Of a DNA stretch of 64,000 nt, positions 2,934 to 21,898 are shown piece after piece; position 1 is the first letter of the stretch; every line of letters begins with the position of its first letter. Origin of the DNA: Xanthomonas sacchari. GTDB taxonomy: Bacteria; Pseudomonadota; Gammaproteobacteria; Xanthomonadales; Xanthomonadaceae. The stretch covers positions 1,779,001-1,843,000 of the forward strand of contig NZ_CP100647.1 in assembly GCF_024266585.1 (NCBI RefSeq), written 5' to 3'. Position numbers and translations under genes: made by a program. The notes beneath the pieces are model-generated. The model made no database searches. It was not told the DNA's origin and saw only the letters and a list, made by a program, of their open reading frames with translations.

Positions 2934-4784
2934 TCAGTTACTGGGCGTACTCCAAACCTGCCTCGTAACTCCCCGCACGCTCGCATCCGCCGCGCTATCC
3001 AAGTCAAACACAATCACGCTATTGCCGCCCTTCCGCTGCCAAGGCGCCGGAAAATACAACGCCCGCTGCGGCCCGATATTCCAGTGCCTTCCCAGGTTAT
3101 GGCCGTTGGCCCAGGCGAAGCCTTTGCCGAAGACCTGCATGTCCAGGAACGTATCGGCAGGCGTGCCGATCTTGAGCGTGCCGCGGTGGAAGGCCGGGCC
3201 ATCGATCTTGGCGGTGGTCCAGCCGGTGAGCTTGCTCAGGTCGTCCATCGGGAGAGGGAAGGTCTGCCAGCCGGTGAGGGGCTTGCCGTCGAGCAGCACG
3301 GGGTCGACCAGGCCGGCGTGCCCGTCGGGGAGGTGGGCGCCGTAGTTGATGCGGCCGGTGTTCTCCACCAGCACGTCGAGAGTGTGGGGGCCGGCGGGGA
3401 TGTCTACGTCCACCGCCACTTGCTGCAGGCGGCGCTCGGCGCTGCCGGCCAGTGTGCGGTCGACGTAGACGCGGGCGTAGTCGCGCACCTCGCCCAGGTA
3501 CAGGCTGCCCTTGCGCGGGCCGGTGACGGTGGTGCGATAGAGGATGTAGCCGTAGGCCTGGCCGTAGCGCTCCATCGGCTGCGGGGTGTCGGTGGTGGCG
3601 GCCGGGGCGGGCAGGTTGTCCCAGAGCGAGGCGGATTCGCGCAGTGGCGTGGCGGGTAGTTCGGCGAAGCGGATCGGCTTGGGCAGCGCCGGCGGGGCGA
3701 CGCCGGTGACGCGCTGGATGGCGTCGCGGAACAGGGTGAACTTGGGGGTGGGGCGGCCGGCTTCGTCGAGCACGGCGTCGTAGTCGTAGCTGGTGGTCTG
3801 CGGGGCGTAGTGGTCGCTGGGGTTCTTCTGGAAGTTGGCGCCATTCATGAAGCCGAAGCTGGTGCCGCCGACGAACATGTAGATGTTGGCGGAATGGCCC
3901 TGACGCAGGATCCATTCGAATTCGCTGGCCTGCTTGGCGCCGTCGGTCACGGCGTGCTTGCTGCCCCACTGGTCGAACCAGCCGGCCCAGTATTCGCCGA
4001 CCATCTGCGGTTGCCCGGGGCGGAACTTGGCCAGGGTCTCGAAGGCGTTCTTGGCGTCGCCGGGGGCGAAGTTCACCACGGCCAGGGTGTCGGGCAGGGT
4101 GCCGTTGGCGAGTACGTCGGGGCCGTCGGCGGTGAACAGCAGTGCTTTGTCGAAGCCGGCGTGGACGAACATGTCGCGGTTGAGGCGCATGTAGGCGTGG
4201 TCGTCGCCGTAGGAGCCGTATTCGTTCTCCACCTGCACGGCGACGATCGGGCCGCCGTTGCCGTTGAGTTGCGGTTTGACCTGGGCGGCGAGTGCGTCCA
4301 GGTAGGCCTGGCTGGCGGCAAGGAAGCGCGGGTCCTGGCTGCGTACGCGCATGCCGGGTTCGGCGAACAGCCACGCCGGATAGCCGCCGGCTTCCCACTC
4401 GGCGCACACGTACGGGCCGGGCCGCAAGATCACGTTGAGGCCTTGCGCGGCGGCTTCGTCGACGAAGGCGGCGATGTCGTTGTTGCCGCTGAAGTCGAAC
4501 TGGCCCGGCCGCGGTTCCACCAGGTTCCAGAACACGTAGGTCTCCACCGTGTTCAGGCCCATCGCGCGCGCTTTCTGCAGGCGGTCCTTCCAGTAGGCGC
4601 GGGGGATGCGCTGGAAGTGGATGGCGCCGGAAATGACCTGGTACGGCTTGCCGTCGCGGATGAAGTGATCGCCCTGGGTGGCGAAGGCGGGCCAGGCGGC
4701 GCTGCTGTCGGCAGCGCGCACGTGGGTGGCGGGCAGGGCGAACGCCAGGGCGAGGGCGAGAGCGGCGAGGGTCGTACGCGGCAT
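2934..4784 (-). CDS. nixL: GH35 beta-galactosidase (NixL type)
   Basis: 616 residues from ATG 4784. The frame is open further upstream, but only this start puts a Sec signal peptide (about 1-24, ending THVRA) at the N-terminus. Glycoside hydrolase family 35: the TIM barrel carries VENEYG at 185-190 (acid/base Glu188) and VGEYWAGW (nucleophile Glu264); beta-sandwich domains follow. Family members release terminal beta-linked galactose. Plant complex N-glycans carry Lewis-a antennae (Gal beta-1,3), a fitting substrate. It is the last gene of the GH125-GH92-GH35 run, matching nixJ-K-L order in X. campestris, so the gene name rests on family plus position. It is probably periplasmic. A second, diverged GH35 lies about 8 kb upstream in the same cluster. 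Confidence 0.9.
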   Translation of the reverse strand: MPRTTLAALALALAFALPATHVRAADSSAAWPAFATQGDHFIRDGKPYQVISGAIHFQRIPRAYWKDRLQKARAMGLNTVETYVFWNLVEPRPGQFDFSGNNDIAAFVDEAAAQGLNVILRPGPYVCAEWEAGGYPAWLFAEPGMRVRSQDPRFLAASQAYLDALAAQVKPQLNGNGGPIVAVQVENEYGSYGDDHAYMRLNRDMFVHAGFDKALLFTADGPDVLANGTLPDTLAVVNFAPGDAKNAFETLAKFRPGQPQMVGEYWAGWFDQWGSKHAVTDGAKQASEFEWILRQGHSANIYMFVGGTSFGFMNGANFQKNPSDHYAPQTTSYDYDAVLDEAGRPTPKFTLFRDAIQRVTGVAPPALPKPIRFAELPATPLRESASLWDNLPAPAATTDTPQPMERYGQAYGYILYRTTVTGPRKGSLYLGEVRDYARVYVDRTLAGSAERRLQQVAVDVDIPAGPHTLDVLVENTGRINYGAHLPDGHAGLVDPVLLDGKPLTGWQTFPLPMDDLSKLTGWTTAKIDGPAFHRGTLKIGTPADTFLDMQVFGKGFAWANGHNLGRHWNIGPQRALYFPAPWQRKGGNSVIVFDLDSAADASVRGVTRQVWSTPSN

Positions 4785-4883
4785 GAGGGATCTCGGAAGA
4801 GGCGATGCGGATGCAACGCAACAGACAACACGAAGCGCGCGCCGCAATGCAACCGGTCGCACGCACAAGGGCGGTGATGGGGA

Positions 4884-4918
4884 ATCAACCAATCCCGATT
4901 CCCCAATCCCCATTCTCC
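4884..4918. repeat. ATTCCC-type low-complexity repeat
   Basis: The short spacer between the GH35 and GH92 genes holds a run of AATCCC/ATTCCCC units, the same simple repeat that is much longer at 42.45-42.77 kb. Confidence 0.6.
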
Positions 4919-7394: not shown

Positions 7395-8837
7395 TCAGGC
7401 CTTCAGCAACTGCGGCTTGCGCTGGTGCAGGTCGATGATCAGTTCGCCGAACAGGGTGTTGGCCCAGGCGAACCAGGGGCGGGTGAAGGTGCTCGGGTTG
7501 TCCTTGTCGAAGGCTTCGTGCATGAAGCCGGTGCCGGCGTCGGTGGTCTTGAGCCACTGCAGGCACTGGCGGATCTGCGCGTCGTCGTCGCTGGCCAGGG
7601 CGTACTGCATCAGCGACATCGGCCAGATCGTGCCCAGGCCGCTGTGCGGGCTGCCCACGCCTTCGGCGGCGCGGCCGCGATAGAAGTACGGGTTGCGCTC
7701 GCTCCAGGCCAGTTGCCGGGTGCGCAGGAACAGCGGATCGCGGCGATCGCAGCAGCCCAGGTAGGCCAGGCTCAGCAGGCCGGGGGCGTTGGCGTCGTCG
7801 ATGAACAACTGGTTGCCGTAGCCGTCCACTTCATAGGCCCAGAACGGTTGGCCGTCGGCGTCGCGCATCTGCCCGAACTGACGGGTGGCGGTCTCGACCT
7901 GGTCGGCCAGAGCGCGGCACTCGCCGGCGAAGGCGGCGTCGTGGTGCAGTGCCTCGCTCATCGTCGCCAGTTGCCGCAGCGAGGTCACCGCGAACAGGTT
8001 GGCGGGGACGAACAGCGGATACAGGCAGGCATCGTCGGACGGGCGGAACATCGAGTGGATCATGCCGTTGGGGCGGGTCGGCTGCCCGTAGCCGTCCAGC
8101 ACCAGAGTCTCGGTGGCCAGCGGCGAGGGCCGCTGGAAACTGTACGGGCCGCGGCCGTGCAGGCGCTGCTGTTCGCGGAAGGTGCGCACCACCACGTGCA
8201 TGGCCTCGCGCCAGTCGTCGTCGAACGGCGCGGCATCGCCGCTGGCGCGCCAATACTCGTGCGCCAGGCGGATCGGATAGCACAGCGAATCCACTTCCCA
8301 CTTGCGCTCGCCGACGCCGGGCTTCATCTCGGTGATGTCGGCCACCGACCACTTCAGGCGCTGGCTGGTGCCGTCGGGCAGGAAGGCGTTGGCGTAGGGA
8401 TCCAGGCGGATGCAGGCGGCCTGGCGCTGGATCAGCCCATGGAACATGCGCCGCAGCGCCGGGTCGCGCTTGGCCAGCGGCACGTAGGGGTGCACCTGCG
8501 CGGAAGAATCGCGTAGCCACATCGCCTCGATGTCGCCGGTGATGACGAAGGTATCCGGCTTGCCGTTGCGGGTGCCGGTCTCGACCGTGGTATCGAGGGT
8601 GTTGGGGTAGCAGTTCTCGAACAGCCAGGCCAGGCGCGGGTCGCCGATGCCGGCCTTGACCGTGCGCAGCTGGCGCTCGACCGCGGTGCTGACGAAGCGG
8701 CGCTTGCCCGGCGGCGGCCGCTTGCTGGGCAGGGCGGCAGAGGCCGATGCCGCGGCGGCGGCCGGCAATGCCCCGCTCAGCAGCGCGGCGCCGGCGCTGG
8801 CGCCGAGGAAGTGGAGAATGTCGCGGCGGGTGGGCAT
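7395..8837 (-). CDS. nixJ: GH125 exo-alpha-1,6-mannosidase (NixJ type), Tat signal
   Basis: 480 residues from ATG 8837. The frame extends upstream, but this start gives a twin-arginine signal (MPTRRDILHFLG, Arg4-Arg5) and a hydrophobic Ala-rich segment. The rest is glycoside hydrolase family 125: RFVSTAVE near the N-terminus, GDIEAMWLRDSSAQ in the (alpha/alpha)6 barrel, and the conserved Asp/Glu-containing C-terminal blocks such as GFMHEAFDKDNP. GH125 enzymes are inverting alpha-1,6-mannosidases. In X. campestris NixJ removes the alpha-1,6-mannose of the core after NixK and NixI have acted. A promoter-like region precedes it, so it probably heads the GH125-GH92-GH35 transcript, separate from the cassette upstream. 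Confidence 0.93.
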   Translation of the reverse strand: MPTRRDILHFLGASAGAALLSGALPAAAAASASAALPSKRPPPGKRRFVSTAVERQLRTVKAGIGDPRLAWLFENCYPNTLDTTVETGTRNGKPDTFVITGDIEAMWLRDSSAQVHPYVPLAKRDPALRRMFHGLIQRQAACIRLDPYANAFLPDGTSQRLKWSVADITEMKPGVGERKWEVDSLCYPIRLAHEYWRASGDAAPFDDDWREAMHVVVRTFREQQRLHGRGPYSFQRPSPLATETLVLDGYGQPTRPNGMIHSMFRPSDDACLYPLFVPANLFAVTSLRQLATMSEALHHDAAFAGECRALADQVETATRQFGQMRDADGQPFWAYEVDGYGNQLFIDDANAPGLLSLAYLGCCDRRDPLFLRTRQLAWSERNPYFYRGRAAEGVGSPHSGLGTIWPMSLMQYALASDDDAQIRQCLQWLKTTDAGTGFMHEAFDKDNPSTFTRPWFAWANTLFGELIIDLHQRKPQLLKA

Positions 8838-8925
8838 GGCCTGGAACGCTCCGTGGAATCGACGAACGCTCCCCGCGCAGGGCCGGCACCGGGAGGCGCC
8901 GGCCGCGGCCGGGAGGGTAGGCTGA

Positions 8926-8944
8926 TGGTACCTATAACGGACCA
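8926..8944 (-). promoter_or_regulatory. candidate operator/promoter of the nixJKL operon
   Basis: The imperfect dyad TGGTACCTATAACGGACCA (TGGT-N11-ACCA) overlaps a minus-strand -10-like TTATAG (8937-8932), about 90 bases upstream of the GH125 start. TGGT...ACCA dyads are typical of HutC-type GntR regulators. The -35 is weak. This is an inference from one site. Confidence 0.3.
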
Positions 8945-9007
8945 ATTTGCGACGACCTTACAACGTGTGGCCGTCCGATGCATCCTGCGACCGCACAACC
9001 GTCCGGC

Positions 9008-10450
9008 TCAGTGGGGGTGGTGCGCGCCGTGCCAGTGCATCGGTCCCGAGCACACGCACTCGCCGTCGTCGTCGCCGTTGCCGGCATGGCCGAACAGGGC
9101 CTCCAGCAGCCGCCGCGACGGGCTCCATTCGCCGATGGCCGGGTGGATCAGCATCGCCTTGCAGGCCTCCAGGTGGCTGCCGCTGAGCGCGGCGTCGATG
9201 GCGGCGTGCTCGTAGGCCTTGACCGTGCGCACCAGGCCCTGGATCGCCTCGGGCATCGGCCGTGCCGGCAGCGGGGTGATGCGGTCGCGTTCGATGGTGG
9301 AGGAGATTTCCACGATGTCGTCGTCGGCCAGTTCGGCCATGCAGCCCTGGTTGCGCACGTTGACCACGTGCCGCCCCGGCAGCGCGCCGGTCAGTGCGCT
9401 CATCACGTCCACGGCGATGCGGTGGTAGCCGGTGCTGGCGCGGAACGGGTCCGGCTGCGGCGCGAGGTCGTCGGCGAAGGCCGAGCCGGCCTCGGCCTCC
9501 AGCCGCATGTACGAGCCGGAGCGCTGCTGCAGGTAGGCGGCGTAGGTCTGCACCGCGCCGCTGCCGTCGCCGGCGTTGAGGCGGCTGCGCAGGTCGGCGA
9601 TCAGGGTGTGGTTGAGCTGTTCGATCTCGCTGCCGCGGCTGGCGCCGCTGGCGCGCTGGTTCTCCAGGGCGCGACTACGCTCGTAGTAGAAGTACAGGTA
9701 TTCGGTGGGGATCAGTCGCAGCGTGCGCAGCATGTCGAAGTCGAACAGCGGCGCCAGGTACAGCTGGCGCAGGATCGCATCGTCGGCCAGGATGCGGTCG
9801 AGCACGTCCTCGCCGCGCACGCGCACCGCGCGGATCCAACCCAGGTGGTTGAGGCCGACGTACTCGCAGTCCACGTCCGCGGGCGGTTCGCCGAGCGCGC
9901 GGGCGATGTTGTGGAACAGCTCCACCGGCGTGTCGCAGATGCCGACCACGCGCGCGCGGGTGTGGCGGCTGATGGCCTGGGTGATCAACCCGGCCGGGTT
10001 GGTGAAGCTGACCAGCCAGGCGTCGGGGCTGAGCCGCTCCACCATCCGCGCCTGCTCGATCGCCACCGGCACCGTGCGCAGCGCCTTGGCGACGCCGCCG
10101 GGGCCGGTGGTTTCCTGCCCGGCGTAGCCGTGGCGGATGATGGTGTGCTCGTCGGTGGCGCGCTGATGGATGCCGCCGATGCGGATGCTGTTGAGCACGA
10201 AGTGCGCGCCGTCGATCGCCGCTTCCGCCGAGCTGGCCGCGTTGACCTGCAGCTCGCCGCCGAACTCGGCGACCACCGCGCGGCCCAGCGCGACCATCAA
10301 CGCCAGCCGATCCTGGTCCGGATCGTAGAGCACGATCTCGCGCGCGCCGAGCGCTTCGGCGGCATCGTTGACGCCGTACACCACCAGCGGCGCGCGCACG
10401 CCGCCACCGCCGATCAGGGCGAGTTTACGGTTGGGAGAGGAACTGCTCAT
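9008..10450 (-). CDS. GH4 NAD-dependent (phospho-)glycosidase
   Basis: 480 residues from ATG 10450. No signal peptide, so cytoplasmic. The N-terminus is a Rossmann fold (ALIGGGGVRAP). Family 4 hallmarks are present: SFTNPAGL (Asn151), the metal-site Cys172 in ICDTP, and His202 in GLNHLGW. GH4 enzymes use NAD+ and Mn2+ and cleave through a 3-keto intermediate; this branch is usually annotated 6-phospho-beta-glucosidase, but specificity cannot be read from sequence. It overlaps the upstream PfkB kinase by 26 bases, so the two products are made together and kinase-then-glycosidase is the obvious order. The C-terminus ends in a Cys/His-rich tail (CVCSGPMHWHGAHHPH) that may bind metal. It is not part of the published nixE-L set. 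Confidence 0.85.
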   Translation of the reverse strand: MSSSSPNRKLALIGGGGVRAPLVVYGVNDAAEALGAREIVLYDPDQDRLALMVALGRAVVAEFGGELQVNAASSAEAAIDGAHFVLNSIRIGGIHQRATDEHTIIRHGYAGQETTGPGGVAKALRTVPVAIEQARMVERLSPDAWLVSFTNPAGLITQAISRHTRARVVGICDTPVELFHNIARALGEPPADVDCEYVGLNHLGWIRAVRVRGEDVLDRILADDAILRQLYLAPLFDFDMLRTLRLIPTEYLYFYYERSRALENQRASGASRGSEIEQLNHTLIADLRSRLNAGDGSGAVQTYAAYLQQRSGSYMRLEAEAGSAFADDLAPQPDPFRASTGYHRIAVDVMSALTGALPGRHVVNVRNQGCMAELADDDIVEISSTIERDRITPLPARPMPEAIQGLVRTVKAYEHAAIDAALSGSHLEACKAMLIHPAIGEWSPSRRLLEALFGHAGNGDDDGECVCSGPMHWHGAHHPH

Positions 10451-11360
10451 GGAGACTCCTGAGACGTGGGGGATCGGGAAGGCCGTCGAGCGCGCCGAGC
10501 GCGGTGCAGCAGGCGGCGCCGCACAGGCAGCCGCGCTGCGCGCAGGCATCGAGGGAAACGTGGTCCAGCAGCGCGTCGATGAAGCCGGCATCGAAGGCGT
10601 CGCCGGCGCCGGTGGTGTCCTGCACGGCGACCACGGGCGCGGCGACCAGTCGCGCGCCGGCCGCATCCACCACGCAGGCGCCGGCGCCGCCGAGCTTGAT
10701 CGTCACCTGCGCCAGGCCCAGCGCCTGCGCCCAGGCGCGGCAGGACGCGGCATCGTCGCCCGTGCAGCCGGCCAGTGCCGCCTCCTTCTGGTTGGGCAGG
10801 AAGTGATCGACCGCGCGGCAGGTGGCGTGGTTGTCCGGATCGCCCAGCCATGCCGGGTTGAAGCCCACGTCCAGCGAGGTGCTGCAACCGGCCGCGCGCA
10901 ATGCCGGCAACAGCGTGCGCGCCAGCGCCGCCGGCAGCGGCAGGGCGAAGTGCACGTGGCGCGCGGCGCGCATCGCCTCCAGCGCGGCGGCGCTGCGCAG
11001 CAGCGGTTCCAGCTCGGCATTGGCGCCGGGGTAGGTGAAGAATGAGCGGTCCTCGCGCAGCGACACGCTGGCGGTGACGCCGGTGCCGGCGGGATGGTCG
11101 ACCAGGCCCTCGGTGCCGACACCGAAATCGCCCAGGCGCTGCGCGAACCAGGCGCGGTCGCCGGCGCCGATCGCGCCGATCAGCGTGACCTTGCGCCCAA
11201 GCCGGGCCAGGCCGCAGGCGGTGTTGACGGTGCCGCCGCCGAGATCGCGATGGTAGTGCCGCGCCATCGCTTCCTCGCCCGGCCCGGGCCAGGTGGTGAA
11301 GCCGCTGAAGATGTGGTCGAGATAGACCTCGCCGACCACCGCGACGTCGTGCGTTTTCAT
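10425..11360 (-). CDS. PfkB/ribokinase-family sugar kinase
   Basis: 311 residues from ATG 11360, whose ATGA overlaps the stop of the permease gene; another ATG lies five codons upstream. PfkB family: GGGTVNTACGLARLG near residue 40 (sugar-binding motif 1) and DTTGAGDAFDAGF at 248-260 with catalytic base Asp254 and the anion hole GAGD. Cytoplasmic ATP-dependent kinase. The family includes ribokinase, fructokinase, KDG kinase and FrlD (fructoselysine 6-kinase). Context (permease before, GH4 after, all overlapping) says it phosphorylates the imported glycoside so that GH4 can act. Which sugar is not visible. Confidence 0.88.
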   Translation of the reverse strand: MKTHDVAVVGEVYLDHIFSGFTTWPGPGEEAMARHYHRDLGGGTVNTACGLARLGRKVTLIGAIGAGDRAWFAQRLGDFGVGTEGLVDHPAGTGVTASVSLREDRSFFTYPGANAELEPLLRSAAALEAMRAARHVHFALPLPAALARTLLPALRAAGCSTSLDVGFNPAWLGDPDNHATCRAVDHFLPNQKEAALAGCTGDDAASCRAWAQALGLAQVTIKLGGAGACVVDAAGARLVAAPVVAVQDTTGAGDAFDAGFIDALLDHVSLDACAQRGCLCGAACCTALGALDGLPDPPRLRSLHEQFLSQP

Positions 11361-12733
11361 TGCTGGAAGGGCCATGCTGCCTCGCGTTTGGCCTGGATGA
11401 GATAGAGCGCGGTGCCCGCGCACAGCGCCAGCACCGCCGCCAGCAGCCGCGGCAGCGGACTGGTGGCCAGCAGCGCCAGCCAGCCGCAGACGCTGATCAG
11501 CAGCGGCCACGGATACAGCGGCATGGCGAAGCTGGCGCGACGCCGCGGCCGTCGCCGCAGCAGCACCACCGCCAGGCATTGCGCCAGGAACTGGAACAGG
11601 ATCTGGATGATCATCAGCGTGGCGATCAGGTCGTCCAGCGACAGCGGGCAGGCCAGCGCCGAGGTGATGCCGACGAACAGCAGCGACACGGTGGGGAAGC
11701 GCCCGCGCGGGTGCAGCCGCGCGAACACGCCGAAGAACTGGCCGGCCGCCGCCGCCGCATACGGCACCCGCGAATAGCCCAGCAGCACCACCAGCGCCGA
11801 GCCCCAACTGGCGAGCACGATCAGCGCCACCGCCACGGTGCTGCCGGCGGGGCCGTAGATGACCTGCATGAAGTCGGCCACCACCGCCTTGGACTGCGCC
11901 GCCTGCCGCCACGGCAGCACGCCCAGCACGGTCACGTTCAAGCCCAGGTACAGCACCGCCACGATCGGAATCGACCACAGCACCGCACGCGGAATCGTGC
12001 GGCGCGGCTTGCGGATCTCGCCGCCGAGCATGCACACGTTGTTGTAGCCGCCGTAGTCGTACACCGCGATCAGCGCCACCGCACCGAAGCCCAGCCAGAA
12101 GCCGTGCGGCGAGGCCGGCCGCGCCTGCAGGAACTCGCGCGCCAGCGCCATGTCGAAATGCAGCGCGCCGCTGAGCACGATCCACAGGCAGGCGGCGATC
12201 ACCACCGCGCTGACCAGCAGCGACAGCAACTGCACCGAGCGCACCTGCCGGTACAGCAGCGCGGTGTTGAAAAGGCACAGCGCCATGGCGATGCCGGTGA
12301 GCGCGGTGTGGCTCAGCCCGGGCATCAGGTAGGCCAGGTACTGCGCGCAGCCGACCGCGGCCGCGGCCACCGACAGCGGCGCGGTCAGCAGCGTCTGCCA
12401 CAGGTACAGGAAGCCGAACAGGCGCCCGGCGCGGTCGCGGCCATAGGCCTCGCGCAGGTAGTGGTACGGCCCGCCCGAGCGCGGAATCGCCGCGCCCAGT
12501 TCGGCCCACACCAGGCCGTCGCACAGGCACAGCAGCGCGCCGACCACCCAGCCCAGCAGCACCGCCGGCCCGGCCAGCGCCGACAGCGCCAGCGGGATGG
12601 TGATGAACGGGCCGATCCCGATCATGTTGAGTAGGTTGGCCGACAGCGCGCTCCAGAACCCCAGCGTGCGCGGCGGCGCGCCCTGGTCCGTGGCGGACGG
12701 GGAGGGCGCGACGGGGGCGGCGAGCGACGTCAT
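11357..12733 (-). CDS. APC-superfamily permease
   Basis: 458 residues from ATG 12733, which overlaps the GH35 stop (ATGA); an ATG two codons upstream is possible. About twelve hydrophobic segments. The first contains NMIGIGPFITIP, the unwound TM1 glycine motif of amino acid/polyamine/organocation (APC) transporters, and the loop motif LVWAELGAAIPRSGGPYHYLR is the classical APC TM2 signature. Members move amino acids, amines or modified amino acids such as fructoselysine (FrlA). An amino-acid-type carrier between a galactosidase and a sugar kinase is unusual and suggests an amino-acid-linked sugar as cargo (inference). Inner membrane. Confidence 0.85.
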   Translation of the reverse strand: MTSLAAPVAPSPSATDQGAPPRTLGFWSALSANLLNMIGIGPFITIPLALSALAGPAVLLGWVVGALLCLCDGLVWAELGAAIPRSGGPYHYLREAYGRDRAGRLFGFLYLWQTLLTAPLSVAAAAVGCAQYLAYLMPGLSHTALTGIAMALCLFNTALLYRQVRSVQLLSLLVSAVVIAACLWIVLSGALHFDMALAREFLQARPASPHGFWLGFGAVALIAVYDYGGYNNVCMLGGEIRKPRRTIPRAVLWSIPIVAVLYLGLNVTVLGVLPWRQAAQSKAVVADFMQVIYGPAGSTVAVALIVLASWGSALVVLLGYSRVPYAAAAAGQFFGVFARLHPRGRFPTVSLLFVGITSALACPLSLDDLIATLMIIQILFQFLAQCLAVVLLRRRPRRRASFAMPLYPWPLLISVCGWLALLATSPLPRLLAAVLALCAGTALYLIQAKREAAWPFQQ

Positions 12734-14649
12734 GTGCATGCACGATCCTGCGGGGAGGGAGGGGGAACGAAGGCCTGCGTTGCAGGCGTGGGCACCAGGC
12801 CGTCGGCACAGCGCACCAGGCCCGGCTGCAGGCGGTGCAGATCGAGCACCAGCACCTGGTTGGCCCCGGCGCGCAGCCAGGCGCCCGGGCAGTACAGGCA
12901 CTGCTGCGGGCCGATGTCCCAATAGCGGCCGAGCAGGCGCCCGTTGACCCACAGATAGCCCTTGCGCCAGTCGCGCATGTCCAGGTGCACGTCGCCGGGC
13001 CGGTCCAGGGTGAACGCGGTGGCGAAGAACAGGCCCGGGCGTTGCGGCGGCGTCTGCAGCTTGCGCAGCGACGGCGTCGGGTCCGTGTCCAGCGCCAGCC
13101 CGCGTACCTCCCAGCCGTGCAGGTCCTGGCCATCGAGCCGCACCGGACCGAGCAGCCCCTTGCGATCGCCCAGCGCCGGGCCGAAGTTGATGTGGCCGAA
13201 GCTGTCGACCAGCACGTCCAGCTCGCGCGTTTGCTTCTGCGCATCGGGCAGGCGCAGGTGCGGCGCGCTGTGCAGGCGCGGATGCCGCATCCGCGACACA
13301 TGGCCCAGCTCGCGCCCGTCCAGATGCACCACCGCGTAGTCGTGGACCTGCCCGAGGTGCAGCGTCCGGCCCGGCGCGATCTGCCGCCGATACAGCACCA
13401 GTCCCTGGTCCTGGCCGAGCAGGCGCTGGTTGTCGCTGGGGATCTCGGTCTGCAGCGCGGGGCCGAGGTTGTCCCACAGTGCGGCCACGGGCTCGGCCTG
13501 CACCGCGTCGAAGTGTGCGCGGCGCGGTGCGGCCGGTGGCGGCGGCGGTGGCGTTTCCGCTTGCGCAGCGATGATCTTGCGCAGCGCGAAGTACGCCGGC
13601 GTGGCGCGGCCGGCCTCGTCGATCGGCGCGCCATAGTCGTAGCTGGTCAGCGCCGGCTGGAATTGCGAGCCGTCGTCTTCGGCATTGGCGCCGGCGCTGA
13701 GGCCGAAATTGGTACCGCCGTGCGCCACGTACAGGTTGAACGAATAGCCGGCGGCGGCGATGCGGCGCAGCAGGGGCGCGTAGTCGCGGCGCGCGAACTG
13801 CGGCTCGCCCCAATGCGTCAGCCAGCCCGGGTAGCCCTCGGACACCCACACCGGCGCCTGCCCGGCGAAGGCCGTGGCCGCCTGCAGATCGTGCAGGTCG
13901 GGACCATCCAGTCCCAGCGCCGCGCCGGGCAGCATGGCCTGGCGTCGGCGCAGATCCTTGAGCCCTTCGGCCAGCGAGAACGGCCCGTCGATGCCATGTG
14001 CCCGCCACAGCGCGGCCAGCGCCTGCAGATAGCCGACGTCGCTGCCGTGCATCGAATACTCGTTCTCGATCTGCAGCATCAGCACCGGCCCGCCGACACT
14101 GGCCATCAACGGCGCGATGCGCGGCGCGATCGCCCCGATGTAGCGTTCCACCGCGGCCATGTAGCGCGCATCGTGGCGATCGCGCAGGCGGATGTCTGGC
14201 GTGCGCAGCAGATACGGCGGCAGCCCGCCCAGCGTCCATTCCGCGCACACGTACGGCCCCGGCCGCAGATACACCCACAGTCCCTCCTGCTGGCATAGCC
14301 GGATGAACCCGACGAAATCGCGCTCGCCGCTGTCCAGGTCGAACTGCCCGGGTGCCGTTTCCAGCGCATTCCACATCAAGTACAGCGCGATGGTATTCAG
14401 CCCCATCGCCTTGGCCATGCGGATGCGATGCAGCCAATCCGCCTTTGCGATCCGCAGTGGATGCAGCTCCCCACTCCGGATCTGCCACGGTTGCCCGTCC
14501 AGCGTGAAACGCCCCTGCGCGAAGCCGAATGCGTGCGGCCGCCCGTCCGGCACCAGTGCTGATGCCGGTACCGCCGCGCGCAGCATCGGCATCGCCGCCA
14601 ATCCCAACGGCGCGAGCAACCCGAATCGGCAGAATGCGCGGCGTTTCAT
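12730..14649 (-). CDS. second GH35 beta-galactosidase, cassette copy
   Basis: 639 residues from ATG 14649. N-terminal MKRRAFCRFGLLAPLG resembles a Tat or Sec signal with a twin Arg at 3-4. GH35: LQIENEYS with acid/base Glu197 and WVSEGYPGW with nucleophile Glu271; GPYVCAEW at 131-138. Beta-sandwich domains follow, with a proline run near residue 365. It shares the general GH35 plan with the nixL product but differs throughout (for example SEGYPGW against GEYWAGW), so it is not a recent duplicate. It heads a tightly overlapping run GH35-permease-kinase-GH4 and probably trims a galactoside outside the cytoplasm before import. Confidence 0.88.
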   Translation of the reverse strand: MKRRAFCRFGLLAPLGLAAMPMLRAAVPASALVPDGRPHAFGFAQGRFTLDGQPWQIRSGELHPLRIAKADWLHRIRMAKAMGLNTIALYLMWNALETAPGQFDLDSGERDFVGFIRLCQQEGLWVYLRPGPYVCAEWTLGGLPPYLLRTPDIRLRDRHDARYMAAVERYIGAIAPRIAPLMASVGGPVLMLQIENEYSMHGSDVGYLQALAALWRAHGIDGPFSLAEGLKDLRRRQAMLPGAALGLDGPDLHDLQAATAFAGQAPVWVSEGYPGWLTHWGEPQFARRDYAPLLRRIAAAGYSFNLYVAHGGTNFGLSAGANAEDDGSQFQPALTSYDYGAPIDEAGRATPAYFALRKIIAAQAETPPPPPPAAPRRAHFDAVQAEPVAALWDNLGPALQTEIPSDNQRLLGQDQGLVLYRRQIAPGRTLHLGQVHDYAVVHLDGRELGHVSRMRHPRLHSAPHLRLPDAQKQTRELDVLVDSFGHINFGPALGDRKGLLGPVRLDGQDLHGWEVRGLALDTDPTPSLRKLQTPPQRPGLFFATAFTLDRPGDVHLDMRDWRKGYLWVNGRLLGRYWDIGPQQCLYCPGAWLRAGANQVLVLDLHRLQPGLVRCADGLVPTPATQAFVPPPSPQDRACT

Positions 14650-14659
14650 TGCGCGCTCC

Positions 14660-14720
14660 AGCAGGACCGTTGCAGTTGTAGTTGCAGTTGCAGTTGCCGT
14701 GGTTGTTGCTGTTGCTTTTC
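14660..14720. repeat. GTTGCA microsatellite
   Basis: A run of near-perfect GTTGCA/GTTGTA hexamers followed by GTTGTT units, directly upstream of the second GH35 gene. It is open to slippage and lies where its ribosome site or promoter would be. Confidence 0.7.
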
Positions 14721-14744
14721 AGCTTTTGCCTTTCCCGGGTCCCC

Positions 14745-15075: not shown

Positions 15076-15084
15076 TGCTTTTGA

Positions 15085-15500: not shown

Positions 15501-15547
15501 CCTGGCACCTCTCCGCGATGGCATCCCAGTGCGCACGTCGCCGCGCC

Positions 15548-18529
15548 CTAGAACGCGTACTTGACGGTCAACAACGTCATCATGCCGGCGTCGACGATGT
15601 CCGACACCGCCAGATTGTGCCGGCCCACATGCCCCCAGTAGCTGTATTCCTTGGTGAGATTGGAGATCGACAGATCCACATTCACCCCGTTGTCGAACCG
15701 ATAGCCCGCGTGCAGGTCCACCCGCCGCGTCGGACGTGCCCACAGGTCGTCCCACGGCGCGTTCTGGTGCAGGAAGTCGTAGTTCAGCAGATAGGAACTG
15801 CTGAAGTGGTAGCTCAGGTTCACCGAGAACTTCGAGTGCTCGTAGAACAGCTCCAGATTGGCCATCGCATTCGGCGCCGACTGCATCTGTTCGTCTTCGA
15901 AGCCGACCATGCCCAGATCGGCATGCGCATGCTGGCGCGTGGCGTTGGCACTGACGCCCAGCCCGTCGAACGGCGCCGGCAGGTCCTGGAAGCGCTGCCG
16001 CGCGCTGACCTCCACGCCGTACACGCGGCCGTCGCCGCCGTTGGTCGGCATCTGGTAGAACACCGTGCCGCTGCCGCTGGTGCCCGAATTGGCCTGGCCG
16101 GAGCCGGCGTCGTAGATGTAGTGGTGCAGGCGCTTGTAGAAGCCGGCCACGGAGAAGAACCCGCCATGGTCGGTCGCCCACTCGCCGGAGAGGTCCAGGT
16201 TGGTCGAGGTGATCGCCTTCAGGTCCGGATTGCCCTGGGTGATGGTGGTGATCGGCGGCACGGCGTTGGAGACGCTGATCTGGCTGCCGCCGCCCAACTG
16301 CACGAATGCCGGCCGCGTATAGCTGGTCCACAGCGCCGCGCGGTAGGTGGTGGCGCTGTCCGGGCGCCAGGTCAGGAACACGCTCGGCAGCGGCTGGTCG
16401 TAGTGCGTGCTGTTGGCGGCGAAGTAGCCGACCTGCTGGTTGCCGTCGCTGTCGGTGGGCGTGGTCCAGAAGGTGTTGTGGATGCTGGTGTGCTCGAAGC
16501 GCACCCCCGGCACCACTTCCAGGCTGCCGAAGGAGAAGGTCGTCATCGCGTAGGCGGCGCTGACCGCCTCGGTGCCGCGCATCGTGTTGCAGTTCCAGTT
16601 GTTGACGTAGAACGCGCTGCCGCAGGTGTCCAGGTCGTCGTCGGTGAGGTGGTTGGCGATGACCTGCGCCACCGCGCCTTCGCTGACCCGCGGCGTGGCC
16701 CAGTGGTACTTGCCGGGGAAGATCGCCGCGTAGCCGCCGTTGAAGATGCCCAGGTCGCCCAGCGTGCTGGCGTCGGGCACTGGCCCGGTCCACCAGTCGC
16801 GGTTGCTGTAGTGGCGGCTGCTCTTGCTGTACTTCACGCCGAACTGCAGCGTGGTCAGCGCGCCGTCGGCGAAGTCGTAGCGCGCGTCGAACTTGGCGCC
16901 GCCCTTCTTCTGCCCGGAGTAGATCTTGGTCGATTCGCCGTAGCTGCTGGCGTACAGCGAGGGGATGTTGTTGACCTGCGCCAGCAGCGCCGGGGTCAGC
17001 TGTGGATAGGGGAAGGCGCCGCTGCCGTAGCGCATCAGGCTGCTGCCGGAGTAGGCGAAGTTGGCCTGGCTGAACTTGTCCTCGCGCCCGTCGATCTCGA
17101 TATGGTCGGGGCGGTCGTTGTCGCCGAAGCTGTAGAACAGGTTCGGCGACAGCGTCCAGTTGCCGGCGGTCTTGCGCGCGCCCACCTGGAAGGTGGCCAG
17201 GTCGGCGATTTCCGGGTTGGTCTCGTACCAGAAGCGTGCGGCGATGCGGTTGATGTTGGGCGAATACACGCCCGGCGTGGCGCTCGGCACGAAGCTGACG
17301 TCCTGCGGCAGCAACTGCACGAAGGTGGTGCCCTGGTCGGTCTTGGCGTAGGCATAGGTGGCGCGCGCATACACCGACAGGGTCTCGTCCACGTTCCAGT
17401 CGAAGGCGGCGTTGCCGCCGTAGCGGCGCTCCCAGCCGGCGACCACGCCGACGTTCATGCCGGTGCTGGTCAGGTTGTCCTGCGGCGCGTAGCCGGCGGC
17501 GTTGCTGCCGTCGGCATTGGCGTGCAGGAAGCGCCAGGAGCCGTCGTTGAGCGCGCTGGTGGCCGCGGCGACCTCGCTGTTGGTCGAGGTGCGGTAGTCG
17601 TAGTAGGCGCTGGCGTAGAAGCCGAACTGCTGCTCGTCGCCGAACTTGCGCTGGAAATCGCCGGCCAGGCCACCGCCGAGGCCGTCGCCGCCGTAGTCGC
17701 GGGCGCGGCTTTCGACGCGGCCGCTGGCGGTGATGCTGCCGCTGCTGGCGTCCTTGAAGTCGTAGGCGGTGGGCGTGCGGAAATCCAGGGTGCCGCCGAT
17801 CGCGTCGCCGTCCATGTCGGCGGTGGAGGTCTTGTTGGCGACGATGGTCTGCAGGCCCGACGGCGGCAGCAGGCTCAACTGCACGCTGCGGCTGTACGGC
17901 ATGCCCTGGGCGACGGTGACGCCGTCGATCAGGTTGACGTTGTATTCGGAGGGCAGGCCGCGCACCGAGGCGAACATGCCTTCGCCGCGGGCGGCGCCGT
18001 CGACGCCGCCGAAGTAGCCCGAGCCGCTGTAGGTGATGTTGATGCCGGCGATCAAACCCAGCGCCTCGGCGACATTGTGCACGGCGGTGTGCTCGAGATC
18101 GTTGGCCGACAGCACGTCCACCGTGTTCGACGCGTTCATCTTCAACGTGCTGGCGTCGTAGCGGTTGACCGCCACGCTGATCGTCTGCAACTGCTTGGCC
18201 TCGTCCAGCGCGATCGACACCGTGGCGGCGCCGCTGTCGGCGACCTGCACGGTGGTTTCCGGGGCGCTGAAGCCGGGATAGTCCAGTTGCAGCGCGTACT
18301 GCCCGGCCGGCACGTCGGCGATGACGAAGCGGCCCTGCGCGTCGGTGACGGCGCTGAGCGCGGTGCCGGCGATGGCGACCTTGGCGTGCGCGGCGGGCTT
18401 GCCGCTGCTGCGCTCCTTGAGTTCGCCCTGCACGGTGCCGGCCAGCGCAGGTGCGGTGGCGGCGAGGCCGGTGATGGCCAGAATGGCGGCGCACAGCGCC
18501 TTGCGCTTGCAATACGGATGGGTTGCCAC
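15548..18529 (-). CDS. TonB-dependent receptor with carboxypeptidase-like N-terminal domain
   Basis: 993 residues; a GTG start is followed by a Sec signal peptide ending near APALA. Next comes a small beta-sandwich carboxypeptidase-regulatory-like domain (about 30-110, with DAQGRFVIADVPAGQY), then the plug (NVAEALGLIAGI, VRGLPSEYNVNLIDG) and a 22-strand barrel ending in aromatic Phe. This is the large Oar-like TBDR class common in Xanthomonas carbohydrate loci. It sits in the outer membrane and, given its position upstream of the GH35-APC-PfkB-GH4 run, is the likely entry gate for that pathway's substrate. The repeat array separates it from those genes, so co-transcription is uncertain. Confidence 0.9.
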   Translation of the reverse strand: MATHPYCKRKALCAAILAITGLAATAPALAGTVQGELKERSSGKPAAHAKVAIAGTALSAVTDAQGRFVIADVPAGQYALQLDYPGFSAPETTVQVADSGAATVSIALDEAKQLQTISVAVNRYDASTLKMNASNTVDVLSANDLEHTAVHNVAEALGLIAGINITYSGSGYFGGVDGAARGEGMFASVRGLPSEYNVNLIDGVTVAQGMPYSRSVQLSLLPPSGLQTIVANKTSTADMDGDAIGGTLDFRTPTAYDFKDASSGSITASGRVESRARDYGGDGLGGGLAGDFQRKFGDEQQFGFYASAYYDYRTSTNSEVAAATSALNDGSWRFLHANADGSNAAGYAPQDNLTSTGMNVGVVAGWERRYGGNAAFDWNVDETLSVYARATYAYAKTDQGTTFVQLLPQDVSFVPSATPGVYSPNINRIAARFWYETNPEIADLATFQVGARKTAGNWTLSPNLFYSFGDNDRPDHIEIDGREDKFSQANFAYSGSSLMRYGSGAFPYPQLTPALLAQVNNIPSLYASSYGESTKIYSGQKKGGAKFDARYDFADGALTTLQFGVKYSKSSRHYSNRDWWTGPVPDASTLGDLGIFNGGYAAIFPGKYHWATPRVSEGAVAQVIANHLTDDDLDTCGSAFYVNNWNCNTMRGTEAVSAAYAMTTFSFGSLEVVPGVRFEHTSIHNTFWTTPTDSDGNQQVGYFAANSTHYDQPLPSVFLTWRPDSATTYRAALWTSYTRPAFVQLGGGSQISVSNAVPPITTITQGNPDLKAITSTNLDLSGEWATDHGGFFSVAGFYKRLHHYIYDAGSGQANSGTSGSGTVFYQMPTNGGDGRVYGVEVSARQRFQDLPAPFDGLGVSANATRQHAHADLGMVGFEDEQMQSAPNAMANLELFYEHSKFSVNLSYHFSSSYLLNYDFLHQNAPWDDLWARPTRRVDLHAGYRFDNGVNVDLSISNLTKEYSYWGHVGRHNLAVSDIVDAGMMTLLTVKYAF

Positions 18530-19168: not shown

Positions 19169-21898
19169 TCACCTCGGCAGGGCCATGCGCCCGCTGATCG
19201 AGAAGGCGGCGTCTTCGCCGGCGGCGCCGGTGCCGGGCTGGCCGCCGCCGACGAACAGCCGGTAGTCGCCGGCCTCGACTGCGCGCTGGCCGCTGCGGTC
19301 GACGTCGCTGAGCTGGCGCGCATCCAGCGCAAAGCTCAACGTGCGCGCCTCGCCTGGCTGCAGATGCACCCGCTGGAAGCCGACCAGGCTGCGCAGCGGC
19401 GACTGCGCGCGCTGCGGGTACTGCAGGTACACCTGCACCACCTCGTCGCCGGCGCGTGCGCCGGTATTGCGCACGGTGGTGCTCACCTGCAGCGGCTGGC
19501 CGGCCTGCAGCGTCGCGGCCGACAGCCGTGGCGCGTCGTAGGCGAACCGGGTGTAGCTGAGGCCGTAGCCGAACGGGAACAGCGGCTCGCCCTTGAAGTA
19601 GCGGTAGGTGCGGCCCTTCATGTCGTAGCTGACGTAGGGCGGCAGGTCCTTGGTCGAGCGGTAGAAGGTCACCGGCAGGCGCCCGCCGGGATTGATGTCG
19701 CCGGCCAGCGCCTGGGCGATCGCGGTGCCGCCGGACTGGCCCGGATACCAGGCGGCGATGATCGCGTCGGCGTGCTGCTTGGCCCAGTTCAACGCCACTG
19801 CGCTGCCGCTCATCAGCACCACGACCAGCGGCTTGCCGCTGGCCTTGGCCCGTTCCAGCAAGGCCTGCTGCGCCGCCGGCAGGGCCAGGTCGTTGCGGTC
19901 GCCGCCATCGAAGCCGGGCACGTCGATGCGCAGTTCCTCGCCTTCCACGTCCGGCGAGAGGCCGACGAAGGCCACCACCGCGTCGGCCTGCGCCACCGCG
20001 CGTTCGGCTTCGGCCAGTTGCAGCGCCGGCGGCGCCAGCCACTCCAGGCGCAGGCCCTGGTCCTGGCCGCGATGCTCCAGTTCCAGGCGGATGCGGCGCG
20101 GTCGCGCGTCGTCGAAGTGCAGCACGGCCTCGACGTTGCGGCCATCGGCGTTGTGCATGCCGGCCGGCAGGTGCTTGTCTTCGGCGTTGCCGGCGATCAC
20201 CAGCTGGTCGTCGACGTACAGGCGCACCGGGTCGTGGCCGGCGCAGTCGAAGCAGCGCGCCACCCGCACCGCCAGGGTGTAGTCGCCCGGGCCGGGCGGC
20301 AGCAGTTCGCCGCTCCAGCGCACCGAGTAGCGGTCCTTGTCCACGCCCTTGGCCGGCGCCACGTGGTCCCAGTTGAAGCCGACCACGCGGTCCTGGCGCT
20401 GCACGCGCGGCGTCCCGGCCAGGTCCGGGTTGTCGAAGTATTCGCCCCGCAGCCCGGGCTTGCCGTCGCTGCGCAGCGCGGTCTCGGGGATCATGCCGGG
20501 CACGCCCGCGGCCAGTGGCGCGCCCTGCGCATAGGCGACCTGGGCGGCGCCGAAGCGCGTGCGCAGGCCCTGCAGCGGCGTCACCGGCTGCACCGAGGTG
20601 CCCTGGTAGTTGGCTTCCAGCGCGGCCAGCGCGTCGGCATTGGGGCCGAGCACGGCCAGGCGCAGGCCCGGGCGCAGCGGCAGGGTGGCGTCGGCGTTCT
20701 TCAGCAGCACCAGCGACTGCTGCGCGGCCTGCAGCGCCAGCGCGCGGTGCGCGGCGTTGTCGATGTCCTTGGCGCCCAGCCGCGCATACGGATCGTGGCG
20801 CGGCGGCTGCAGTTCGCCGAGCCGGTAGCGCGCGGCGAACAGGCGCACCAGCGAGCGGTCGAGCAGGGCCTCGTCGGCCTCGCCGCGGTCGAAGGCCAGG
20901 CCGAGCTCGCGGTAGGCGAAGCCGCAGTTCAGGTCGTGCCCGGCCTTGAGCGCGGCCGCGGAAGACCCGGCGTTGTCGGCGCGGTAGTAATGGAACTGGG
21001 TCATGTCGTCGATCGCATCGCAATCGGATACGACGAAACCCTTGAAGCCCCAGTCGCCGCGCACGCGGCCGTTGATCAGCCAGTCGGCGGCGCAGGCGGG
21101 CGTGCCGTGCAGGGCGTTGTACGCGCACATCACCGAGCCGGCCTGGCCGTCGACGATGGCGGCACGGAACGCCGGCGAGTAGGTGGCCTCGAAATCGTGC
21201 GGCGACACATCCACGTCGAAGCCGTGGCGGCCCGGTTCCGGCCCGCTGTGCACGGCCAGGTGCTTGGGCGTGGCGATGGTGCGCGGGTGCGCCGGATCGT
21301 CGCCCTGCAGGCCGCGGATGAAGCCGACCGCCAGCCGCCCGGTGAGGTAGGGATCCTCGCCGTAGGTCTCCATGCCGCGGCCCCAGCGTGGGTCGCGGAA
21401 GATGTTGATGTTGGGCGACCAGATGGTCAGCCCGGCGTAGCGCGGATGGTCCTTGCCGGGGCCGCCGGCGAGGTTGAACTTGGCCCGCGCCTCGGTGGAG
21501 GTGACGGTGCCGACGTCGTGCAGCAGCTCGGGGTTCCAGGTCGCGGCCAGGCCGATCGCCTGCGGGAACACCGTGGCCTCGCCGTTGCGGGCTATGCCGT
21601 GCAGGCCCTCGCTCCACCACTCGTAGGCCGGCACGCCCAGGCGCGGAATCGCCGGCGCGTCGTTCATCGCCTGCGCGATCTTCTCGGCGCGGGTCATCTT
21701 CGCCACCAGCGCGGCGGCGCGGTCCTCGGCCTCGTCGGCGTGGGCGAGCGGGGCGGCGAGCAGGCCGATCGCGCACAGCGCCAGGTAGATGCGCCTTTGT
21801 GGGAGGGACTTCAGTCCCGACGTGGCATTACCGGTAAAGCGTCGGGACTGAAGTCCCTCCCACAAGGTGACGCCCGCACGCGACATCTCCCTGCCCAT
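19169..21898 (-). CDS. nixI: GH3 beta-xylosidase/glucosidase with PA14 insert (NixI type)
   Basis: 909 residues from ATG 21898, which overlaps the GH2 stop (ATGA). The first 35 residues are odd: residues about 11-34 are encoded by an inverted pair of palindromic repeats, and only then comes the hydrophobic signal core (IYLALCAIGLLAAPLAHA). GH3 barrel: WWSEGLHG, KHLAVHSGPE, and nucleophile Asp292 in VVSDCDAI. A PA14 domain (starting GLRGEYFDNPD) is inserted in the second domain, and a fibronectin-III-like domain ends the protein. In X. campestris NixI cleaves the beta-1,2-xylose of plant N-glycans after NixK. Periplasmic or secreted. No ATG/GTG/TTG start exists between the repeat and the signal core. 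Confidence 0.9.
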   Translation of the reverse strand: MGREMSRAGVTLWEGLQSRRFTGNATSGLKSLPQRRIYLALCAIGLLAAPLAHADEAEDRAAALVAKMTRAEKIAQAMNDAPAIPRLGVPAYEWWSEGLHGIARNGEATVFPQAIGLAATWNPELLHDVGTVTSTEARAKFNLAGGPGKDHPRYAGLTIWSPNINIFRDPRWGRGMETYGEDPYLTGRLAVGFIRGLQGDDPAHPRTIATPKHLAVHSGPEPGRHGFDVDVSPHDFEATYSPAFRAAIVDGQAGSVMCAYNALHGTPACAADWLINGRVRGDWGFKGFVVSDCDAIDDMTQFHYYRADNAGSSAAALKAGHDLNCGFAYRELGLAFDRGEADEALLDRSLVRLFAARYRLGELQPPRHDPYARLGAKDIDNAAHRALALQAAQQSLVLLKNADATLPLRPGLRLAVLGPNADALAALEANYQGTSVQPVTPLQGLRTRFGAAQVAYAQGAPLAAGVPGMIPETALRSDGKPGLRGEYFDNPDLAGTPRVQRQDRVVGFNWDHVAPAKGVDKDRYSVRWSGELLPPGPGDYTLAVRVARCFDCAGHDPVRLYVDDQLVIAGNAEDKHLPAGMHNADGRNVEAVLHFDDARPRRIRLELEHRGQDQGLRLEWLAPPALQLAEAERAVAQADAVVAFVGLSPDVEGEELRIDVPGFDGGDRNDLALPAAQQALLERAKASGKPLVVVLMSGSAVALNWAKQHADAIIAAWYPGQSGGTAIAQALAGDINPGGRLPVTFYRSTKDLPPYVSYDMKGRTYRYFKGEPLFPFGYGLSYTRFAYDAPRLSAATLQAGQPLQVSTTVRNTGARAGDEVVQVYLQYPQRAQSPLRSLVGFQRVHLQPGEARTLSFALDARQLSDVDRSGQRAVEAGDYRLFVGGGQPGTGAAGEDAAFSISGRMALPR
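21797..21865. repeat. palindromic repeat doublet inside the GH3 coding start
   Basis: Two inverted copies of the GGGACTTCAGTCCC element flank a 21-base linker. They lie in frame and free of stops between the GH3 start codon and its signal-peptide core. Confidence 0.85.

What the first reader, a model, noticed from the sequence alone, without database searches (positions are those of the whole stretch)
9008..14649. APC permease + PfkB kinase + GH4 + GH35: a candidate glycosyl-amino-acid pathway
Four overlapping genes encode a periplasmic galactosidase, an amino-acid-type permease, a ribokinase-family kinase and an NAD-dependent GH4 glycosidase. A permease of the APC class followed by a PfkB kinase is the logic of the E. 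coli fructoselysine (frlA, frlD) pathway: import an amino-acid-linked sugar, phosphorylate it, cleave it. Here GH4 would replace the deglycase. Candidate cargoes in a plant pathogen are Gal-Hyp or Gal-Ser from cell-wall glycoproteins, or GlcNAc-Asn left by the GH18 enzyme next door. This combination is not part of the described nix system.
Basis: partly seen in the sequence, partly recalled or inferred. Interest (0 to 1): 0.85.

Follow-up and report, generated by a model that had tools for sequence, protein, structure and literature searches.

The report
Kinase-then-GH4 pathway, perhaps for glucosaminyl-inositol
Inside a plant-sugar-eating gene cluster of a Xanthomonas-like bacterium sits a small self-contained cassette that probably imports a sugar joined to something else, phosphorylates it and cuts it; relatives in other phyla hint that the cargo is glucosamine joined to inositol, not a sugar joined to an amino acid.

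Summary
Confirmed: GH35, APC permease, PfkB kinase and GH4 are four overlapping genes at 9008-14649. With the upstream TonB-dependent receptor they form a cassette inserted in the nix N-glycan cluster, already listed without a function for X. citri (PMC5700972). The trio occurs in the same 13 of 20 genomes of the genus; in three of six contexts examined it lies away from nix. APC-PfkB-GH4 recurs in Luteibacter, Azospirillaceae and Acidobacteriota, and a PfkB gene lies near 65 of 75 GH4 genes of one subfamily (R19/D173) that keeps the phosphosugar-type site. So import-phosphorylate-cleave is well supported, without direct proof. The proposed cargo is not: kinase and permease are not FrlD- or FrlA-like. 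Neighbours elsewhere suggest glucosaminyl-inositol: PIG-L de-N-acetylases (24 of 80 loci, 0 of 59 random windows), glucosamine-6-phosphate deaminase (3 of 80), and inositol genes, once overlapping APC (9 of 80 but 3 of 59 random windows, not significant alone; within Acidobacteriota IolD goes with GH4, p 0.0036). D173, shared with solved 6-phospho-alpha-glucosidases, fits an alpha bond. Plant GPI anchors would be a fitting source. Against: the window genome has no IolD and no PIG-L near the cassette. Nothing has been assayed.

The parts
9008..10450 (-). GH4, NAD-dependent phosphoglycosidase-like enzyme of the R19/D173 subfamily (480 aa)
   Evidence: Pfam; residues R19, R90, R97, D173; model pLDDT 89, closest solved structures 6-phospho-glucosidases
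10425..11375 (-). PfkB-family sugar kinase, 316 aa from 11375 or 311 aa from 11360; DTTGAGD motif present (read by eye)
   Evidence: Pfam; tree with the GH4-linked kinases
11357..12733 (-). APC-family permease (458 aa)
   Evidence: Pfam and NCBIfam
12730..14649 (-). GH35 beta-galactosidase-type enzyme (639 aa), N-terminus with a twin-arginine-like signal (read by eye, no predictor run)
   Evidence: Pfam; closest solved structures are beta-galactosidases
15548..18529 (-). TonB-dependent receptor of the cassette (993 aa)
   Evidence: Pfam; NCBIfam TonB-Xanth-Caul; beside the trio in 6 of 6 genus loci examined (cut by the locus end in L020) and in 2 Luteibacter loci
7395..8945 (-). GH125 alpha-mannosidase (NixJ by gene order), flanking nix gene; the start codon was not settled
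   Evidence: Pfam; order compared with PMC5700972 and PMC6718126
4923..7265 (-). GH92 alpha-mannosidase (NixK by gene order), flanking nix gene
   Evidence: Pfam
2934..4913 (-). second GH35 (NixL by gene order), flanking nix gene
   Evidence: Pfam
19169..21874 (-). GH3 (NixI by gene order), the other border of the inserted cassette
   Evidence: Pfam

Best explanation
The five genes are a PTS-independent import-phosphorylate-cleave unit. The receptor takes a conjugate through the outer membrane, GH35 trims a beta-galactose in the periplasm, the APC permease carries the remaining amine-bearing glycoside into the cell, PfkB phosphorylates its sugar (probably at O6), and GH4 then splits the phosphorylated alpha-glycoside by its NAD-dependent mechanism. 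The most likely glycoside is alpha-glucosaminyl-inositol, giving glucosamine-6-phosphate and inositol; in plants its source would be GPI anchors or related glycosylinositol lipids. Shown by computation: gene content, overlaps, conservation, subfamily residues, neighbours elsewhere. Inferred: the order of reactions, the sugar, the aglycone, the anomer. Guessed: that the source in this bacterium is the GPI anchor. Confidence: about 0.75 for phosphorylate-then-cleave, 0.6 for a glucosamine sugar, 0.42 for glucosaminyl-inositol, 0.2 for GPI anchors as the source here. The figure below is for the whole statement without the source; it was lowered from 0.48 after the redrawn control.
For: A PfkB gene lies within 1.6 kb of GH4 in 65 of 75 loci with R19/D173 and in 0 of 4 with Y19/N173, and these kinases fall together in a tree apart from seven E. 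coli kinases and IolC (SH-aLRT 88). The GH4 keeps 8 of 9 residues of the -1 subsite listed for ChbF (PMC13197890 passages), including R97, which MelA lacks. The ninth, N173, is D, as in the four solved 6-phospho-alpha-glucosidases shown and unlike the three solved beta enzymes shown. Glucosamine: PIG-L de-N-acetylase genes in 24 of 80 loci against 0 of 59 random windows, confirmed by Pfam in seven proteins; glucosamine-6-phosphate deaminase in 3 of 80, in L140 overlapping the GH4 reading frame by 4 bp. Inositol: iolG over cut-off overlapping the APC reading frame in Nitrospirillum L073, beside iolC-iolD; IolG at 68% behind GH4 and a PIG-L in L078; in Acidobacteriota, IolD in 3 of 10 GH4 carriers against 6 of 237 others (Fisher p 0.0036); seven iol-linked loci need at least 6 changes on the GH4 tree. 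Source: plant GPI cores carry a beta-galactose on the first mannose and alpha-GlcN-inositol (PMC7704450 passages); GH125 and GH92 lie next door.
Confidence: 0.42

Rival explanations
1. Same import-phosphorylate-cleave unit, but for another alpha-glycoside (for instance a hexosaminide with another aglycone, galactinol, or an ordinary alpha-linked disaccharide), with no inositol in the Xanthomonas case.
For: GH4 of the same subfamily stands beside a PTS EIICB gene in two enterobacterial loci (L068, L142) and beside sugar ABC transporter genes in rhizobia, where no iol match reached the threshold (L130, L139, L143, L147); the window genome has no IolD; iol nearness is not significant against random windows.
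Against: iolG inside the operon in L073 and L078 and the IolD association in Acidobacteriota.
Confidence: 0.32
2. One reading: a glycosyl-amino acid (GlcNAc-Asn, Gal-Hyp or Gal-Ser) is imported, phosphorylated and cleaved by GH4.
For: The permease belongs to an amino-acid carrier family; the cassette lies in an N-glycan cluster; an M17 aminopeptidase gene stands in 5 of 80 relative loci, though also in 2 of 59 random windows.
Against: No frl kinship; D173 suggests an alpha bond while GlcNAc-Asn and Gal-Hyp are beta-linked (recalled; Gal-Ser would fit alpha). In Lactobacillus casei the fucosyl-GlcNAc-Asn pathway uses a glycosylasparaginase (PMC6960285, abstract and section headings seen); no asparaginase was looked for in the loci.
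Confidence: 0.13
3. GH4 first cleaves an unphosphorylated glycoside and PfkB phosphorylates the freed sugar.
For: Some GH4 enzymes act without phosphate (recalled); MelA is annotated as a plain alpha-galactosidase.
Against: R90 and R97 are kept in 88 of 88 locus GH4s and in ChbF but are Q and T in MelA.
Confidence: 0.09

Closest known systems
E. coli chb system (PTS, ChbG deacetylase, ChbF GH4)
   Same: GH4 on a 6-phosphorylated glucosaminide; a deacetylase makes the free amine first (PMC13197890 passages); -1 subsite shared at 8 of 9 residues
   Different: Phosphorylation by PTS instead of a PfkB kinase; cargo is chitobiose; N173 instead of D173
E. coli frl system (FrlA, FrlD, FrlB)
   Same: APC permease plus PfkB kinase: import, phosphorylate, cleave
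   Different: FrlD and FrlA are only remote relatives; the cleaving enzyme FrlB is a deglycase, not GH4
nix N-glycan cluster of Xanthomonas
   Same: Genomic place; cassette genes listed for X. citri 306 between nixI and nixJ (PMC5700972)
   Different: Extra genes not in X. campestris nix by that paper; no function given there; in three of six genus contexts examined the cassette is elsewhere
6-phospho-alpha-glucosidases (GlvA type, 1u8x, 6dux)
   Same: CD at the 172-173 position, phosphosugar-type site
   Different: R19 in the glycine-rich loop, where the four shown have F or Y (alignment by eye); kinase neighbour

Membership tests
GH4 | Pfam GH4 N- and C-terminal domains over cut-off | tested here: met
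   139.3 and 144.8 bits, cut-offs 23.2 and 24.1
GH4 phosphoglycosidases | -1 subsite residues as listed for ChbF | tested here: met
   8 of 9 identical, N173 replaced by D
GH4 phosphoglycosidases | Activity on a 6-phosphoglycoside | not testable with these tools
   needs an assay
6-phospho-alpha-glucosidases (GlvA type) | CD motif | tested here: met
   D173
6-phospho-alpha-glucosidases (GlvA type) | Closest structural kin among GH4 | tested here: inconclusive
frl (fructoselysine) system | Kinase over the FrlD model cut-off | tested here: not met
   48.8 bits, cut-off 247
frl (fructoselysine) system | Permease over the FrlA model cut-off | tested here: not met
   96.2 bits, cut-off 800
frl (fructoselysine) system | SIS-type deglycase FrlB | tested here: not met
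   no SIS match among the five cassette proteins
myo-inositol catabolism (iol) | IolD in the genome | tested here: not met
   best 219.4 bits, cut-off 715, in the window genome; over cut-off in 25 of 30 relative genomes tested
nix N-glycan cluster | Position between nixI and nixJ | tested here: met
   gene order in window against PMC5700972 and PMC6718126
nix N-glycan cluster | Role in N-glycan processing | not testable with these tools
   three cassettes elsewhere in their genomes speak against a fixed role

The most novel reading that the evidence does not exclude
A widespread, undescribed bacterial pathway consumes the glucosaminyl-inositol core of GPI anchors and related lipids: trimming outside, uptake by APC, ABC or PTS carriers, PfkB (or PTS) phosphorylation, GH4 cleavage to glucosamine-6-phosphate and inositol. 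In Xanthomonas-like plant bacteria it is coupled to the N-glycan cluster, so that plant GPI-anchored glycoproteins would be stripped of both N-glycans and anchors.
Probability: 0.18. Interest if true: 0.85.

Novelty: new variant of a known kind. Interest (0 to 1): 0.6.

Why it matters
If right, it explains a gene set annotated only as celF, ribokinase and cation transporter in a plant pathogen, names a substrate for a distinct GH4 subfamily whose kinase-linked members occur in at least five phyla (Pseudomonadota, Acidobacteriota, Bacillota, Actinomycetota, Chloroflexota), shows a kinase standing in for the PTS ahead of GH4, and points to glycosylinositols (GPI anchors, plant and fungal inositol lipids) as bacterial food. 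Each step can be tested with a few purified enzymes.

Tried and rejected
Considered and set aside: frl-type pathway; GH35 as exo-glucosaminidase (closest solved structures are beta-galactosidases, 1.3e-109, against 2.5e-21 for 5gsm); a dedicated PIG-L or iol set in the window genome (IolD not over cut-off, one distant PIG-L). A SIS phosphosugar enzyme does exist in the window genome (39% to the Conexibacter one), but it may be GlmS-like and was not followed up.

Led nowhere: a conserved unknown gene in 7 Bacillota loci (L088:15435-17018) gave no Pfam match and no credible PDB sequence match, and a poor model (mean pLDDT 47). In the structural second look only GH4 and then lactate or malate dehydrogenase folds were listed among the 50 rows. 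A search of the window for one exact promoter pattern found nothing. Literature searches listed no paper whose title or abstract start describes this pathway; the library holds only openly licensed PMC papers. Dupoiron 2015, the main nix paper, is not held.

A control that changed a claim: my first 40 control windows were placed by hand at round coordinates when I already knew where iolD lies on some of those contigs, so their zero for iol genes (9 of 80 against 0 of 40, p 0.028) was partly by design. I redrew 60 windows by a seeded random script with no exclusion. One (L216) fell on the L076 locus itself and was dropped before counting; of the other 59, PIG-L is in 0, deaminase in 0, iolD/G/E in 3 (L225, L240, L253). 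The contigs are those seen, so they are still enriched for iolD-like genes, and four windows per contig favour small contigs. The expectation of about 0.1 iolD-bearing loci in 30 assumes one iolD per 5.5-Mb genome and is only a rough guide; 5 were seen.

The count of 9 iol loci includes weak matches in L118 (38%) and L145 (30-31%).
Full report
WHAT IS THERE. The four genes are real and intact. On the - strand, in transcription order, come GH35 (14649-12730), an APC permease (12733-11357), a PfkB kinase (11375 or 11360 to 10425) and GH4 (10450-9008). Overlaps are 4 bp, 4 bp (if PfkB starts at 11360) and 26 bp. A TonB-dependent receptor lies upstream at 15548-18529. The surroundings are a nix-type N-glycan cluster: GH3, GH2, GH20, GH18, GH29 and a receptor on one side, GH125, GH92 and a second GH35 on the other. 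That the organism is a Xanthomonas is inferred from this order and from PMC5700972; no tool named it.

PRIOR MENTION. PMC5700972 (section 7 read) says that X. citri 306, compared with X. [quoted passage not shown] By content and place that is this cassette. No function is given for it in that section. PMC6718126 (passages) gives the nix gene list in the same order.

A SELF-CONTAINED CASSETTE. GH4, APC and PfkB occur in the same 13 of 20 genomes of the genus, contiguous in all 13 by their coordinates; APC and PfkB matches at the thresholds used were absent from the 21 family and order relatives searched. Six of the 13 contexts were examined: three lie in nix (L017, L018, L020) and three show no nix gene within about 19 kb (L015, L016, L019), where the receptor, GH35, APC, PfkB and GH4 stand together in the same order. 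In L015 the flanks include a FadL-type protein and cytochrome oxidase genes. The unit therefore occurs as a whole outside nix.

CONSERVATION BEYOND THE GENUS. APC, PfkB and GH4 stand next to each other in this order in 13 of the 80 (L072-L080 and L082-L085): two Luteibacter (also with the receptor and GH35), two Azospirillaceae, one proteobacterial MAG and eight Acidobacteriota. The APC gene of L079 matches in two pieces. Five more loci have an APC gene nearby in another order. Elsewhere the PfkB-GH4 pair comes with ABC transporter genes (Bacillota; rhizobia; Actinomycetota by tblastn), and in two enterobacterial loci GH4 comes with a PTS EIICB gene and no PfkB match (L068, L142).

NOT AN FRL RELATIVE. 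Against NCBIfam the kinase scores 105.1 bits for ribokinase and 48.8 for FrlD; the permease scores 192.7 for a general amino-acid transporter subfamily and 96.2 for FrlA; none reaches its cut-off. BLAST gives 29% to RbsK, 28% to FrlD, 26% to FrlA. In a quick tree the GH4-linked kinases form one group apart from the seven E. coli kinases and IolC, with SH-aLRT 88; FrlD and KdgK sit on long branches, so their exact place is unsure.

CLUES TO THE CARGO: GLUCOSAMINE. Many loci contain a PIG-L protein, a family named for GlcNAc-PI de-N-acetylase, mostly large and with NPCBM-associated or CBM9 domains (Pfam on seven proteins); that they are secreted is my guess. By tblastn PIG-L is in 24 of 80 loci and in 0 of 59 random windows from 14 of the same genomes (p 3.6e-7, loci not independent), and also in 0 of the 40 hand-placed windows. 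Of five more Acidobacteriota loci fetched, four have it (L161-L164). The E. coli precedent is direct: ChbF does not act on GlcNAc6P-GlcNAc and needs ChbG to free the amine (PMC13197890 passages). A glucosamine-6-phosphate deaminase gene lies in 3 of 80 loci and 0 of 59 windows (p 0.26, not significant alone): NagB in L140, its frame overlapping that of GH4 by 4 bp and matching solved deaminases at 2.8e-53, NagB in L121 (40% to E. coli), and a SIS-type enzyme in L125 (8eol, glucosamine-6-phosphate deaminase, 9.9e-32; other phosphosugar isomerases score higher).

CLUES TO THE CARGO: INOSITOL. In Nitrospirillum (L073) an inositol dehydrogenase gene (IolG model, 419 bits, cut-off 355) directly precedes the APC gene, the frames overlapping by 4 bp; the divergent genes beside it exceed the iolC and iolD models. 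In L078 the order is receptor, APC, PfkB, GH4, PIG-L, IolG (68% identity to that IolG). IolD over cut-off is inside L125, L132 and L135. Inside Acidobacteriota, IolD over cut-off is in 3 of 10 GH4 carriers against 6 of 237 others (p 0.0036), about 13 and 7 kb from GH4 in two of the three. Seven iol-linked loci need at least 6 changes on the GH4 tree, so the link arose or was lost repeatedly. Against this: by tblastn iolD, iolG or iolE is in 9 of 80 loci but also in 3 of 59 random windows (p 0.24); one of the three, L240, is a real-looking iol cluster, the others are 22-24% matches that may be acetolactate synthases. Seven of the 10 Acidobacteriota carriers have no IolD over cut-off. The figure of 25 of 30 carrier genomes with IolD (3 of 14 named controls) may only reflect groups in which inositol use is common. 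Inositol is therefore the weaker half of the proposal and leans on operon structure in a few loci and on one phylum-wide test.

SYNTHESIS. De-N-acetylase and deaminase suggest that one half of the cargo is glucosamine; the iol genes suggest inositol for the other; D173 suggests an alpha bond. Alpha-glucosaminyl-inositol is the core of GPI anchors (Man-alpha-1,4-GlcN-alpha-1,6-inositol) and, from memory, also occurs in fungal inositol lipids and in mycothiol. Plant GPI anchors carry a beta-galactose on the first mannose (PMC7704450 passages). A beta-galactosidase in the cassette and alpha-mannosidases next door would fit its stepwise stripping. In Bacillota the pair stands with GH38, GH125 and phosphoesterase genes, which fits a mannosylated phosphodiester substrate but equally high-mannose glycoproteins. 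In the window genome there is no IolD over cut-off and no PIG-L near the cassette; with a GPI source the amine is already free, so no PIG-L would be needed, but this is an argument after the fact.

CONTROLS AND LIMITS. Everything is comparative. The first control windows were placed by hand with knowledge of iolD positions; the redrawn random ones are described under Tried and rejected. Loci are related; the scan favours GH4s like the query. Neighbourhood evidence from other phyla is carried over to the window by homology of GH4, PfkB and, in the nearest groups, APC. This receptor and GH35 are matched only in Luteibacter among the 80 loci; the Acidobacteriota loci have another receptor.

VERDICT. 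I file it as a new variant of a known kind: known families in a known logic, with a kinase in place of the PTS, a distinct GH4 subfamily and probably a new cargo. My searches listed no description of it in the held library.

Noticed in passing
L088:15435-17018 and six related genes (L087, L092, L093, L094, L096, L099): A well conserved protein of about 520-560 aa without Pfam or credible PDB sequence match beside PfkB-GH4 in Bacillota loci (7 of 80 loci, 0 of 59 random windows); the structure model was poor.
   Followed up: partly
L108, L117, L120 (Bipolaricaulota): GH4 of the Y19/N173 type without a PfkB match; a gene behind it has a BadF-type ATPase match (tested in L117), with GH130 (L120) and GH1 (L108) near: perhaps a parallel kinase-plus-GH4 route.
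   Followed up: partly
L068 and L142: R19/D173 GH4 beside a PTS EIICB gene with no PfkB match nearby, as if PTS and PfkB were interchangeable.
   Followed up: partly
L087, L088, L089, L092, L093, L094, L096: Bacillota loci combine PfkB-GH4 with several of GH38, GH125, M17 aminopeptidase and phosphoesterase genes, suggesting breakdown of a mannosylated, phosphate-containing glycoconjugate.
   Followed up: partly
window 14650-15547: A gap of about 900 bp between GH35 and the receptor gene, with short TTGCAG-like repeats next to GH35; in the relocated cassettes the two genes are nearly adjacent.
   Followed up: no
L079:5818-7069: The APC gene matches in two pieces, so it may be frameshifted in this MAG.
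   Followed up: no
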